A DNA stretch of 64,000 nt from Pseudorasbora parva. Taxonomy: Eukaryota; Chordata; Actinopteri; Cypriniformes; Gobionidae. Below, one piece after another: positions 9,602 through 27,794 of this stretch (its first letter is position 1; every line of letters starts with the position of its first letter). The stretch is from NCBI RefSeq assembly GCF_024679245.1, contig NC_090182.1, positions 29,715,547 through 29,779,546 on the forward strand, in the 5' to 3' direction. Below the pieces are notes generated by a model that ran no database searches, was not told where the DNA came from, and worked only from the letters and a program-made list of their open reading frames with translations. A program made the position numbers and the translations under genes.

Positions 9602-9660
9602 ATGGAGAAATATGATAAAGTCCTGAATCTTGGCAGAGGAGGAGCAGGTGTTGTAATGTT
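9602..9660 (+). CDS. NEK-family kinase, first coding exon, part before the giant insertion
   Basis: The exon begins MEKYDKVLNLGRGGAGVVML: a start codon, then the glycine-rich ATP-binding loop (GRGGAGVV at residues 11-18). At 9660 the reading frame is broken by the 18-kb element. The last 8 bases (gtaatgtt, 9653-9660) are the target site and recur at 27787-27794. If the element and one target copy are ignored, the frame continues exactly into 27795. An upstream start is not needed. Confidence 0.9.
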
Positions 9661-10436
9661 ACTGCGGTCAAGCCAGCCGCGCTTCGAAAATACACGGTCA
9701 AGCCAGCCGCCCTTTTTTTTTTGTATGCGCGTCTAATAGTGCTCTTACGGTATGGGTGCTGGAAGCGGTCAAAATGGTTTTAAAGACTCTGTAATAAAGG
9801 CGTTTCATTTATGCTTTTGCATTTGTCCCTAAAAAGAGTAAGACCATCATTTTTCATCTTATTAGGACACAGATAATACAATTTAATGTTTTAAAAACAC
9901 ATGACTTATTTTAATTTTAATGTTTGCATATGCTATACATTAATTATTATACGTAATGTTTTTTGTATAACTTTTTGATTGTAATGTTTTCTTATACTAT
10001 ACATTAATTACTATACATCATTTATTAATTTTATTGTTATTACTTTTTATTTTAATTTATAGTTAAGTATAATATATGAATTTTATGCATAATTTATTAC
10101 TATTAATTTTATTACTTTTTGATTTTAATGTTTTATAGGCTATATTATATTAATAAATATATATTATTATTATTAGAAATGAATTTGTTAATATTCATGT
10201 TAAAATAATACATCATTAATGTTAATTTTTTTATGTTGGTATATGCTATACATTAATTATTATACATTTATTAATTTAAATTGATTTACTTATATATATA
10301 TATATATATATATATATATATATATATATATATATATATATATATATATATATATATATATATATATATATATATATATATATAATTATTATTATTATTA
10401 CTATTAATTAATGTTATTCATCCTTATATCATAAAT
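9661..10436 (+). repeat. left long terminal inverted repeat of the giant element
   Basis: It matches 27037-27786 in inverse orientation almost base for base, including a run of ten T/A. At least three substitutions are visible, near 10018 and just before the TA tract; the tract length also differs. Near the tip CGGTCAAGCCAGCCGC occurs twice, 30 bp apart (9665 and 9695), and a shorter GCGGTCAA recurs near 9766. These are likely transposase binding sites, by analogy with subterminal repeats of other transposons. Confidence 0.9.
10290..10382. repeat. (TA)n microsatellite in the left terminal repeat
   Basis: About 46 TA units. The mirrored tract at 27077-27155 is shorter, as expected for slippage after insertion. 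Confidence 0.95.
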
Positions 10437-10445
10437 TGTTATAAG

Positions 10446-13400
10446 ATTTCAAAAAAATCATAAAAATCTTTCCTTCATAGGTTTGCTCATTCTGTCACTT
10501 GATATTTGTTCAGAGTGACCCTGACTATTACTGTATTTATTTACAAGTCATTTTACTGTATAGTTTTGGAGAAAAGTACAGTCAAACTCAGCAAAAAATC
10601 AAAGTGAATTCAAACACTGTCCAATTTTCAAAAAATCATAAAAATCTTTCCTTCATAGGTTTGCTCATTCTGTTAATGGATATTTGTTCAGAGTGACCCT
10701 GACTATTACTGTATTTATTTACAAGTCATTTTACTGTATAGTTTTTGAGAAAAGTACAGTCAAACTCGCCCCAACAGTCATTTAAGCACTTACAGTCCAA
10801 TATTCAAAAAATCATAAAAATCTTTCCTTCATAGGTTTGCTCATTCTGTCAATTGACATTTGTTCAGAGTGGCCCTGACTATTACTGTATTTATTTACAA
10901 GTCATTTTACTGTATAGTTTTGGAGAAAAGTACAGTCAAACTCGCCCCAACAGTCATTTAAGCACTTACAGTCCAATATTCAAAAAATCATAAAAATCTT
11001 TCCTTCATAGGTTTGCTCATTCTGTCATTTGATATTTGTTCAGAATGACCCTGACTATTACTGTATTTATTTACAAGTCATTTTACTGTATAGTTTTGGA
11101 GAAAAGTACAGTCAAACTCGCCCCAACAGTCATTTAAGCACTTACAGTCCAATTTTCAAAAAATCATAACAATATTTCCTTAATAGGTTTGCTCATTCTA
11201 TCAATGGATATTTGTTCAATGTGACCCTGACTATTACTGTATTTATTTATAAGTCATTTTACTGTATAGTTTTTGAGAAAAGTACAGTCAAACTCGCCCC
11301 AATGGTCATTTAAGCACTTACAGTCCAATATTCAAAAAATCATAAAAATCTTTCCTTCATAGGTTTGCTCATTCTGTCAATTGATATTTGTTCAGAGTGA
11401 CCCTGACTATTACTGTATTTATTTACAAGTCATTTTACTGTATAGTTTTTGAGAAAAGTACAGTCAAACTCGCCCCAATGGTCATTTAAGCACTTACAGT
11501 CCAATATTCAAAAAATCATAAAAATCTTTCCTTCATAGGTTTGCTCATTCTGTCAATGGATATTTGTTCAGAGTGACCCTGACTATTACTGTATTTATTT
11601 ACAAGTCATTTTACTGTATAGTTTTGGAGAAAAGTACAGTCAAACTCAGCAAAAAATCAAAGTGAATTCAAACACTGTCCAATTTTCAAAAAATCATAAA
11701 AAACTTTCCTTCATAGGTTTGCTCATTCTGTCAATGGATATTTGTTCAGAGTGACCCTGACTATTACTGTATTTATTTACAAGTCCTTTTACTGTATAGT
11801 TTTGGAGAAAAGTACAGTCAAACTCGCCCCAACAGTCATTTAAGCACTTACAGTCCAATATTCAAAAAATCATAAAAATCTTTCCTTCATAGGTTTGCTC
11901 ATTCTGTCAGTTTATATGTGTTGAGAGTGACCCTGACTATTACTGTATTTATTTACACATCATTTTACTGTATAGTTTTGGAGAAAAGTACAGTCAAACT
12001 CGCCCCAACAGTCATTTAAGCACTTACAGTCCAATTTTCAAAAATTCATAAAAATCTTTCCTTCATAGGTTTGCTCATTCTGTCAATGGATATTTGTTCA
12101 GAGTGACCCTGACTATTACTGTATTTATTTACAAGTCATTTTACTGTATAGTTTTTGAGAAAAGTACAGTCAAACTCGCCCCAACAGTCATTTAAGCACT
12201 TACAGTCCAATATTCAAAAAATCATAAAAATCTTTCCTTCATAGGTTTGCTCATTCTGTCAATGGATATTTGTTCAGAGTGACCCTGACTATTACTGTAT
12301 TTATTTACAAGTCATTTTACTGTATAGTTTTTGAGAAAAGTACAGTCAAACTCGCCCCAACAGTCATTTAAGCACTTACAGTCCAATATTCAAAAAATCA
12401 TAAAAATCTTTCCTTCATAGGTTTGCTCATTCTGTCAATTGATATTTGTTGAGAGTGACCCTGACTATTACTGTATTTATTTACAAGTCATTTTACTGTA
12501 TTGTTTTTGAGAAAAGTACAGTCAAACTCGCCCCAACAGTCATTTAAGCACTTACAGTCCAATATTCAAAAAATCATAAAAATCTTTCCTTCATAGGTTT
12601 GCTCATTCTGTCACTTGATATTTGTTGAGAGTGACCCTGACTATTACTGTATTTATTTACACGTCATTTTACTGTATAGTTTTGGAGAAAAGTACAGTCA
12701 AACTCGCCCCAACAGTCATTTAAGCACTTACAGTCCAATATTCAAAAAATCATAAAAATCTTTCCTTCATAGGTTTGCTCATTCTGTCACTTGATATTTG
12801 TTGAGAGTGACCCTGACTATTACTGTATTTATTTACACGTCATTTTACTGTATAGTTTTGGAGAAAAGTACAGTCAAACTCGCCCCAACAGTCATTTAAG
12901 CACTTACAGTCCAATATTCAAAAAATCATAAAAATCTTTCCTTCATAGGTTTGCTCATTCTGTCAGTTGATATTTGTTCAGAGTGACCCTGACTATTACT
13001 GTATTTATTTACAAGTCATTTTACTGTATAGTTTTGGAGAAAAGTACAGTCAAACTCAGCAAAAAATCAAAGTGAATTCAAACACTGTACAATTTTCAAA
13101 AAATCATAAAAAACTTTCCTTCATAGTTTTGCTCATTTTGTCAATGGATATTTGTTCAGAGTGACCCTGACTATTACTGTATTTATTTACAAGTCATTTT
13201 ACTGTATAGTTTTTGAGAAAAGTACAGTCAAACTCGCCCCAACAGTCATTTAAGCACTTACAGTCCAATATTCAAAAAATCATAAAAATCTTTCCTTCAT
13301 AGGTTTGCTCATTCTGTCAATTGATATTTGTTCAGAGTGACCCTGACTATTACTGTATTTATTTACAAGTCATTTTACTGTATAGTTTTTGAGAAAAGTA

Positions 13401-26818: not shown

Positions 26819-27036
26819 GCAAGTGCTTGTATAAATTATGTATAAAAAGTAATATTAATGATGTATGATAATTAACATGAATATTAACATTATTAATAGT
26901 ACTGAATGTATAATAATTAATATATAATACATTTAAAACATTAAAATAAAAAACATGAATACAATTAAAATGAATACATTATGAATAATAATTAATGTTC
27001 AGCATATACAAACATTAAAAAAGTAACATTAATTTA

Positions 27037-27786
27037 TGATATAACGATGAATAACATTAATTAATAGTAATAATAATATATATATATATATATATATATA
27101 TATATATATATATATATATATATATATATATATATATATATATATATATATATATAAGTAATTCAGTTTAAATTAATAAATGTATAATAATTAATGTATA
27201 GCATATACCAACATAAAAAAATTAACATTAATGATGTATTATTTTAACATGAATATTAACAAATTCATTTCTAATAATAATAATATATATTTATTAATAT
27301 AATATAGCCTATAAAACATTAAAATCAAAAAGTAATAAAATTAATAGTAATAAATTATGCATAAAATTCATATATTATACTTAACTATAAATTAAAATAA
27401 AAAGTAATAACAATAAAAATAATAAATGATGTATAGTAATTAATGTATAGTATAAGAAAACATTACAATCAAAAAGTTATACAAAAAACATTACGTATAA
27501 TAATTAATGTATAGCATATGCAAACATTAAAATTAAAATAAGTCATGTGTTTTTAAAACATTAAATTGTATTATCTGTGTCCTAATAAGATGAAAAATGA
27601 TGGTCTTACTCTTTTTAGGGACAAATGCAAAAGCATAAATGAAACGCCTTTATTACAGAGTCTTTAAAACCATTTTGACCGCTTCCAGCACCCATACCGT
27701 AAGAGCACTATTAGACGCGCATACAAAAAAAAAAGGGCGGCTGGCTTGACCGTGTATTTTCGAAGCGCGGCTGGCTTGACCGCAGT
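27037..27786 (-). repeat. right long terminal inverted repeat of the giant element
   Basis: It is the inverse of 9661-10436, ending gcggctggcttgaccgcagt. It includes a TA tract at 27077-27155. Between it and the satellite, 26819-27036 is AT-rich sequence resembling the inner part of the terminal repeat but absent on the left side. Confidence 0.9.
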
Positions 27787-27794
27787 GTAATGTT

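What the first reader, a model, noticed from the sequence alone, without database searches (positions are those of the whole stretch)
9653..27794. 18-kb transposon inserted in the ATP-loop codons of a NEK kinase gene
The exon reads in frame up to 9660 and continues in frame at 27795. The 8 bases gtaatgtt are present on both sides, exactly as a transposition event would leave them. Terminal repeats of about 0.75 kb are nearly identical, which suggests a young, possibly polymorphic insertion. An 18-kb cut-and-paste-type element without visible transposase is unusually large for fish, and its end sequence (actgcggtcaagccagccgc) is not one I can assign to a known family.
Basis: partly seen in the sequence, partly recalled or inferred. 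Interest (0 to 1): 0.9.

Follow-up and report, generated by a model that had tools for sequence, protein, structure and literature searches.

The report
Jumping satellite-repeat hairpin broke fish kinase
An 18-kb mobile element, built mostly of satellite repeats arranged as two mirror-image arms, interrupts the first exon of a fish kinase gene; six sister copies in the same genome carry the same dead cargo, which shows that such repeat-laden elements move whole, and this copy or its nearest sister likely jumped within roughly the last 60,000 years, presumably with a transposase that has not been found.

Summary
In detail: an 18,126-bp element (9661-27786) with 8-bp duplications (GTAATGTT) interrupts exon 1 of NEK12 in a cyprinid, very likely Pseudorasbora parva, and the empty-site frame is exact. 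The inverted repeats are not 0.75 kb but 4.5 and 6.3 kb: an outer domain of under 1 kb, then 21 and 31 copies of a 176/178-bp satellite in opposite orientation that meet almost head-on. The only other content is a 7.3-kb block of dead LINE, DIRS and solo-LTR-like pieces. It is a non-autonomous foldback-type transposon. The host genome holds six more copies (14-41 kb), five with their own 8-bp duplication, all carrying that block at the same satellite junction, so the unit moves whole. A copy on C9 differs from the window copy by 2 substitutions in 18,045 bases, yet its left array is 15 monomers longer: array length changes faster than letters. The largest copy has 132 monomers in one arm with a 27-monomer higher-order repeat. 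A second family with related ends carries an unrelated 167-bp satellite in the same layout. Transposase and superfamily remain unknown; whether the insertion is polymorphic was not testable. Closest in architecture: Drosophila Tetris.

The parts
9602..9660 (+). NEK12 exon 1, first 19 codons and 2 bases (glycine-rich loop), up to the insertion
   Evidence: in-frame join with 27795 onward and alignment to fish NEK12
9653..9660 (+). left target site duplication GTAATGTT
   Evidence: sequence
9661..10451 (+). left outer (flanking) domain of the terminal inverted repeat, AT-rich inner part with a (TA)n run
   Evidence: inverted match to the right end, 3 mismatches in the first 708 aligned bases; conserved at the ends of the sister copies
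9665..9680 (+). CGGTCAAGCCAGCCGC, first copy; likely transposase binding site (inferred)
   Evidence: match scan
9695..9710 (+). CGGTCAAGCCAGCCGC, second copy, 30 bp further in
   Evidence: match scan
10452..14117 (+). left satellite array, about 21 monomers of 176 bp (type A) and 178 bp (type B)
   Evidence: TRF and blastn, monomer split
14118..15891 (+). LINE fragment (endonuclease/reverse transcriptase), 5'-truncated; its 3' part is missing here and in the C9 copy but kept in the other five
   Evidence: RVT_1 hit, relatives, comparison with the sister copies
15891..21376 (+). dead DIRS-type retroelement (label recalled; inverted terminal repeats 15891-16004 and 21215-21312; tyrosine recombinase frames 20064-21002 with a stop and a frameshift)
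16866..17870 (+). open frame of a second LINE-like fragment lying inside the DIRS element (fragment borders not determined)
   Evidence: ORF and a below-cut-off Exo_endo_phos_2 hit
18612..19191 (+). solo-LTR-like insertion, TG...CA, 4-bp duplication GTTC; present in this copy and the C9 copy, absent in the other five, which show the uninterrupted site
21377..21440 (+). short remnant of the + satellite: the mirror axis of the foldback lies at its right edge
   Evidence: blastn orientation switch at 21432/21441 and sequence
21441..26828 (-). right satellite array, about 30 monomers, opposite orientation
   Evidence: TRF and blastn
26829..27786 (-). right outer domain of the terminal inverted repeat
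27737..27752 (-). CGGTCAAGCCAGCCGC, second copy at the right end
27767..27782 (-). CGGTCAAGCCAGCCGC, first copy at the right end
27787..27794 (+). right target site duplication GTAATGTT
   Evidence: sequence
27795..28851 (+). rest of NEK12 exon 1, open frame intact
   Evidence: tblastn of fish NEK12
29787..29987 (+). NEK12 exon 2
   Evidence: tblastn, 100% to P0017
30556..30732 (+). NEK12 exon 3 (approximate left edge)
   Evidence: tblastn

Best explanation
This is a non-autonomous foldback-type DNA transposon whose two arms are oppositely oriented satellite arrays; it lies in exon 1 of NEK12 between 8-bp duplications, and it likely got there by cut-and-paste with a transposase supplied by another, unidentified element. 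Shown: ends, duplications, empty-site frame, palindromic satellite arms, seven copies in one genome with the same interior block, and a sister on C9 with 2 substitutions in 18,045 compared bases. Inferred: the repeated 16-mer CGGTCAAGCCAGCCGC near each tip is likely a transposase site; the arrays would grow and shrink by block-wise unequal exchange or slippage while the element keeps moving; the insertion would remove the kinase N-lobe (glycine loop, catalytic lysine) from any protein made from this allele.
For: Ends and duplication. Palindromic arms. Family: 18 exact end matches in the 1.23-Gb genome, 0 for the reversed-pattern control; 14 of the 18 are the two ends of seven copies, the other 4 belong to E4 (two), E6 and E10. 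Exact 8-bp duplications at 6 of 7 copies (GTAATGTT, AAAATAAT, TGAACTGC, GATATTTC, AAACAAAC, GATAAAAA); the 7th (E1) has none. Same block beginning at the same satellite junction in all seven. E5 vs window: middle 7,259 bp identical; right arms 6,410 vs 6,412 bp with 2 mismatches and one 2-bp gap in a TA run; left arms share 716 + 3,660 of 4,457 bases. Twelve of the 14 flanks (1 kb each) are unrelated apart from two matches of 34 and 42 bp. Host gene. Architecture matches Tetris (PMC4079207; abstract and two sections seen).
Against: No transposase or autonomous partner was found: the arms hold no ORF of 100 aa or more wholly inside them, and interior frames give only retroelement-type hits, several below Pfam's own cut-offs, plus weak helix-turn-helix matches in the recombinase piece. 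One KDZ transposase locus that was read lacks the end motif. E1 has no duplication, nor has E4, whose ends are related. No empty NEK12 allele of another individual could be looked at. Cut-and-paste is inferred from duplications and ends, not observed.
Confidence: 0.9

Rival explanations
1. The copies spread as segmental duplications or by gene conversion, not by transposition.
For: Copies E1 and E2 sit 285 bp apart on C4 and E1 has no duplication; E9 has one end of each subfamily type, so recombination between copies does happen.
Against: 6 of 7 copies have an 8-bp duplication directly at the ends, each with different letters; 12 of the 14 flanks were compared and are unrelated; the window copy lies inside an exon whose empty-site frame is exact.
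Confidence: 0.04
2. The LINE, DIRS and LTR pieces landed in this copy after it inserted in NEK12, so only a smaller element moved.
For: Nested retroelement insertions are common, and the window alone could not exclude it.
Against: All seven copies carry the LINE/DIRS block from the same satellite junction, and the solo-LTR-like piece is shared with the C9 copy.
Confidence: 0.01
3. The insertion is an assembly artefact.
For: Long palindromic satellite arms are hard to assemble; array lengths in the assembly, including the 15-monomer difference and the 132-monomer arm, may be inexact.
Against: Exact duplication, exact frame, symmetrical ends, and copies with other flanks. The truncated P. parva NEK12 model (P0017, starts at Met83) agrees but is probably from the same assembly.
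Confidence: 0.04
4. The moving enzyme is a Zisupton-type (KDZ) transposase.
For: Zisupton makes 8-bp duplications (PMC12730594, passages) and this genome holds 33 KDZ matches, 27 of them without stops, several with identical scores.
Against: None of the 33 KDZ matches lies within 1.5 Mb of one of the 39 end matches (coordinates; both lists are lower bounds), and the one KDZ locus read, 19 kb at C17, has no copy of the 20-bp end with fewer than 7 mismatches.
Confidence: 0.25
5. The moving enzyme is a Mutator/Phantom-type transposase.
For: [quoted passage not shown] Tetris (8-10 bp) and Tm1 (mostly 9, range 8-10 bp) have similar duplications and composite repeats (PMC4079207 section; PMC3169594 passages).
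Against: Six exact 8-bp duplications; no Mutator gene was tied to these ends (the MULE search did not complete).
Confidence: 0.35
6. The insertion is removed from NEK12 mRNA, by the spliceosome or by hairpin-dependent SOS splicing, so the gene still works.
For: [quoted passage not shown] original paper not held; that inverted repeats are the signal is recalled). The arms could form a very long RNA hairpin. Of 20 donor-acceptor pairs near the junctions 7 are in frame, one of net zero length.
Against: The donors that look best by eye (CAG|GTGTTG, GTT|GTAATG) are not in frame with the terminal CAG, and the P. parva model skips the first 82 residues.
Confidence: 0.06

Closest known systems
Tetris, foldback transposon of Drosophila virilis (PMC4079207; abstract and sections 10 and 17 seen)
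   Same: Non-autonomous; outer flanking domain, then ~220-bp tandem repeats inside the terminal inverted repeats, variable middle without apparent coding capacity, 8-9 bp duplications in the complete copies, no autonomous copy found; allelic copies differ in repeat number.
   Different: No sequence comparison was possible; Tetris repeats reach 1.7 kb; here arms reach 24 kb and 132 repeats, with essentially no loop and an inherited block of dead retroelements; the host is a fish.
Tm1, Mutator/Foldback family of root-knot nematodes (PMC3169594, passages)
   Different: Mostly 9-bp duplications; one group encodes a Phantom-type transposase; no satellite arrays of this size in the passages seen.
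Galileo, P-superfamily foldback-like element of Drosophila (PMC3688188, passages; 7-bp duplication recalled)
   Same: Long internally repetitive terminal repeats; transposase binding sites lie inside the repeats.
   Different: 1.2-kb repeats; P-type transposase known.
Xenopus 1723 and sea urchin TU elements (recalled, not read)
   Same: Recalled to have subterminal tandem blocks, inverted ends and 8-bp duplications.
   Different: Not compared by sequence; by title and abstract start, none of the 8 papers listed of 86 was on 1723.
Zisupton (fish DNA transposon, 8-bp duplications; PMC12730594 and PMC9297572, passages)
   Same: 8-bp duplications; found in fish.
   Different: Codes for a large transposase; the one KDZ locus read here has no such ends.

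Membership tests
Class II TIR transposon (any superfamily) | terminal inverted repeats flanked by a fixed-length target duplication at independent sites | tested here: met
   7 copies with inverted ends, exact 8-bp duplications at 6 of 7
Foldback-type element (structural group) | very long terminal inverted repeats built of internal tandem repeats | tested here: met
   arms of 4,457 and 6,346 bp, each covered by inverted matches to the other, with 21 and 31 monomers
Foldback-type element (structural group) | non-autonomous, variable middle | tested here: met
   no transposase frame found; middle is retroelement remains, without a match in two old relatives, L038 and L044
Tetris family proper | sequence homology to Tetris ends or TIR-220 | not tested
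   Tetris letters were not in the text seen
Mutator superfamily (MULE/Phantom) | MULE transposase acting on these ends | not tested
   genome search for PF10551 did not complete
Mutator superfamily (MULE/Phantom) | 9-bp (8-10) duplications | tested here: inconclusive
   8 bp in 6 of 7 copies; 9 possible for the window copy by a one-base ambiguity
Zisupton / KDZ | 8-bp duplications | tested here: met
   6 of 7 copies
Zisupton / KDZ | shared termini with a KDZ-encoding element | tested here: inconclusive
   1 of 33 KDZ matches read, no such termini in 19 kb
hAT superfamily | CAGNG-type tips (recalled) | tested here: not met
   tips are ACTGCGG
Polinton/Maverick or Teratorn-like giant element | own polymerase/integrase or herpesvirus gene set | tested here: not met
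   nine interior frames scanned against Pfam: only retroelement-type hits

The most novel reading that the evidence does not exclude
These are mobile satellite factories: cut-and-paste foldback elements that carry whole palindromic satellite arrays from place to place, in which the arrays expand to more than 130 monomers and build centromere-like higher-order repeats inside each hopping copy, so that transposition rather than local amplification seeds ready-made satellite arrays across a vertebrate genome. At least two families with related ends and unrelated satellites (176 and 167 bp) do this in one fish.
Probability: 0.55. Interest if true: 0.78.

Novelty: new variant of a known kind. Interest (0 to 1): 0.66.

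Why it matters
How satellite DNA spreads between chromosomes is an old question. Here one assembly shows seven whole copies of one element with different array lengths, six of them with clean target duplications, and one pair that differs by 15 monomers but by only 2 substitutions in 18,045 sites. That makes array growth inside a mobile element measurable. It also gives a probable knock-out allele of a kinase gene, possibly polymorphic, in what is very likely Pseudorasbora parva. Very long palindromes are expected to be unstable (recalled), so their presence at 14-41 kb is a test case. By title and abstract start, none of the papers listed described a fish foldback element of this kind; the library holds open-licence papers only and the lists were partly capped, so this is weak evidence of absence.

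Tried and rejected
Exact end 19-mer in viral contigs: 5 matches, all in mutually similar GC-rich contigs whose similarity to the element stops at the 19-mer; rejected as unrelated. A longer end pattern and a satellite word in viral contigs, and an end pattern in genome contigs: 0 matches. End letters in papers: 0. P. parva genome papers with all three terms asked: 0. Dating by left/right end divergence: rejected after one search showed that the difference predates the jump. Terminal-intron (introner) idea: splice pairs enumerated, none convincing by eye. KDZ partner: one locus read, no shared ends. Single-ended or divergent end matches read for a transposase: L029-L032, L038, L041-L044; the frames listed were looked at by eye only, retroelement-like, host-like or short, and not run against Pfam. 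E10 (C24) is a chance 19-mer match by its following letters, though older end matches lie about 18 and 56 kb away. Eleven further places among the end matches (C24 right end, C15, C14:12.88 Mb, C8, C13 twice, C9:17.5 Mb, C9:39.4 Mb, C17:40.9 Mb, C16, C2) were not read. Satellite arrays outside the elements and MULE genes could not be searched.
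Full report
Observation. The element occupies 9661-27786 (18,126 bp) between two copies of GTAATGTT (9653-9660 and 27787-27794). Joined at the duplication, the flanks read MEKYDKVLNLGRGGAGVVMLMRQVDTKKLCAVKRI without a stop for 377 codons. The gene is NEK12: many of the top relatives are named NIMA-related kinase 12 in cyprinids, and P0017 [Pseudorasbora parva] is 100% identical over the stretches 27982-28851 and 29787-29987. P0017 starts at Met83, downstream of the insertion and without the N-lobe; its contig length of 48.18 Mb fits the rank of C11 between C10 (49.2 Mb) and C14 (47.2 Mb), so it is probably the same assembly and not independent. 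Of 21 relatives aligned, 20 cross the site without a gap; P0007, not aligned, starts at Met19 for an unknown reason. P0004, from a 435-kb contig, matches the window's exon 1 from codon 1 into the sequence after the exon end, so in that genome the exon is probably uninterrupted in the DNA.

Anatomy. The ends begin ACTGCGGTCAAGCCAGCCGC; the 16-mer CGGTCAAGCCAGCCGC occurs at positions 5 and 35 of each end and nowhere else in the window within 3 mismatches. An outer domain of about 0.8 kb (left) and 0.96 kb (right) leads into satellite arrays: 10452-14117 in + and 21441-26828 in - orientation. Two monomer types are mixed irregularly, A (176 bp) and B (178 bp), 12.6% apart on average and mainly in one segment; 16 A and 4 B full monomers on the left, 24 A and 6 B on the right; within-arm and between-arm differences are alike for type A (0.036, 0.042, 0.041), though nearest neighbours lie in the same arm more often than in shuffles (34.1 of 50 against 25.0 +/- 3.7; 4 of 1,000 shuffles reach it). 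The + satellite reappears briefly just before the point where the orientation flips, near 21436, so before the retroelements arrived the element was close to a loop-less palindrome. The two arms are fully covered by inverted matches to each other and the 7,259-bp middle not at all.

Interior. The middle holds a LINE fragment (reverse transcriptase; closest listed relatives are fish proteins at up to 76% identity), a DIRS-type element (label recalled; inverted repeats, reverse transcriptase, tyrosine recombinase with PF00589 below Pfam's cut-off) broken by a second LINE-like piece and a 580-bp solo-LTR-like insertion with a GTTC duplication. Its recombinase has one stop and one frameshift relative to an open relative, P0121, with 297 of 309 identities in the longer aligned stretch. 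No frame scanned resembles a DNA transposase.

Family in the host genome. The genome search was answered: the window is C11:29715547-29779546 of a 1.23-Gb assembly. The 19-base end occurs 18 times, the reversed control 0 times. Fourteen are the two ends of seven copies: E1 C4 (14,173 bp), E2 C4 (16,735), E3 C6 (16,210), E5 C9 (20,766), E7 the window (18,126), E8 C17 (23,048), E9 C19 (41,058). Of the other four, two are the ends of a related family (E4, C7), one is a single end (E6, C9), and one (E10, C24) looks like chance. Exact 8-bp duplications flank six of the seven; E1 has none. All seven have the outer domain, both satellite arms and the LINE/DIRS block beginning at the same satellite junction; the other border of the block differs in some copies through deletions. 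The block therefore travelled with the element.

History from comparison. E5 and the window copy are identical over 7,259 bp of middle; their right arms differ by 2 substitutions and one 2-bp gap in a TA run; their left arms share a 716-base start and a 3,660-base end and differ by a TA run and by 15 monomers, E5 being longer. Fourteen of the 15 extra monomers are exact duplicates of monomers in the shared left part, so the change is a block gain or loss of unknown direction. Two substitutions in 18,045 compared sites give, at recalled rates of 1e-8 to 3.5e-9 per site and year, a point estimate of about 5,500 to 16,000 years and a 95% upper limit of about 20,000 to 57,000 years for the split of the two copies (Poisson arithmetic on the counts). 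This dates the last jump linking the two; if the window copy is the parent, its own insertion could be older. E2 and E3 have identical middles in 6,086 compared sites; E1 differs from them by 10; E8 differs from E1-E3 by 10-16; E9 differs from E1, E2, E3, E7 and E8 by 45-56 of about 6,080 and from E5 by 46 of 4,309; the window differs from E1, E2, E3, E8 and E9 by 0.77-0.92%. The solo-LTR-like piece is in E5 and E7 only; the other five show the uninterrupted site with one GTTC. E5 and E7 lack about 1.09 kb that the other five keep (E9 by coordinates); in E1, where it was read, this is the 3' part of the LINE with an A-rich tail, a short piece of satellite B and a DIRS end. E9 has one end of each sequence type (5 and 2 differences from the respective types in 620 bases), so it looks recombinant.

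Arrays inside the copies. Monomers per left/right arm, by an anchor word: E1 14/10, E2 25/14, E3 13/23, E5 36/31, E7 21/31, E8 53/19, E9 132/35. In E9's left array 51 of 104 monomers equal the one 27 places on, a higher-order repeat of about 4.8 kb, and none of E9's 79 distinct monomers occurs exactly among the monomers read in the other six copies (pieces cut at locus borders lose a few monomers). Older relatives with partly similar ends are small: about 2.75 kb on C14 (L038) and a likely 3-kb remnant on C4 (L044), with a few monomers, the same + to - switch, and no match to the LINE/DIRS block. I infer growth from such a compact form. E4 on C7 has ends 76-77% similar over 92 bp, about 31 and 34 monomers of a 167-bp satellite in opposite arms with no match to the 176-bp one, and a LINE/DIRS-containing middle.

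How it works. Shown: insertions at unrelated sites with fixed-length duplications and conserved tips, carried-along dead cargo, array change in blocks with few letter changes. Inferred: a transposase acting in trans on the tips, probably through the doubled 16-mer. Which one is open; Mutator-like by analogy with Tetris and Tm1, KDZ by duplication length and by the 33 KDZ matches in this genome, against which stands the one KDZ locus read.

Effect on the host gene. The insertion falls inside the glycine-rich loop coding region; reading on from exon 1 reaches a stop after 44 codons. A downstream start would give a kinase without loop and catalytic lysine. Removal from mRNA cannot be excluded but nothing here supports it.

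Known or new. The architecture is that of foldback elements, closest to Tetris. Size, loop-less satellite palindrome, inherited retroelement block, higher-order repeats inside a mobile element and occurrence in a fish make it a variant. Absence from print rests on the listings in an open-licence library only.

Noticed in passing
G000 C7:11523831-11544271 (L020-L022): A second giant foldback family with related ends but an unrelated 167-bp satellite in both arms (about 31 and 34 monomers) and a LINE/DIRS middle; no target duplication found.
   Followed up: partly
G000 C19:16626142-16667199 (L033-L037): 41-kb copy with 132 monomers in one arm, a 27-monomer higher-order repeat, and ends of two different subfamily types.
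   Followed up: partly
G000 C4:42010285-42041477: Two copies 285 bp apart; the left one has no duplication.
   Followed up: partly
G000, 33 places: KDZ (Zisupton-type) transposase matches, 27 of 33 without stops and several with identical scores, suggesting recent activity of that superfamily in this fish.
   Followed up: partly
P0017: The public P. parva NEK12 model begins at Met83, apparently because the insertion cuts exon 1; the annotation hides a disrupted gene.
   Followed up: yes
P0007: A NEK12 relative from an unnamed source (93% identical) starts at Met19, just at the insertion site; a cut contig or another disrupted allele.
   Followed up: no
window 3563-4042, - strand: Frame resembling a Tc1-type transposase remnant (recalled resemblance).
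   Followed up: no
window 49501-51980: Several frames of a degraded LINE reverse transcriptase in the right flank (recalled resemblance).
   Followed up: no
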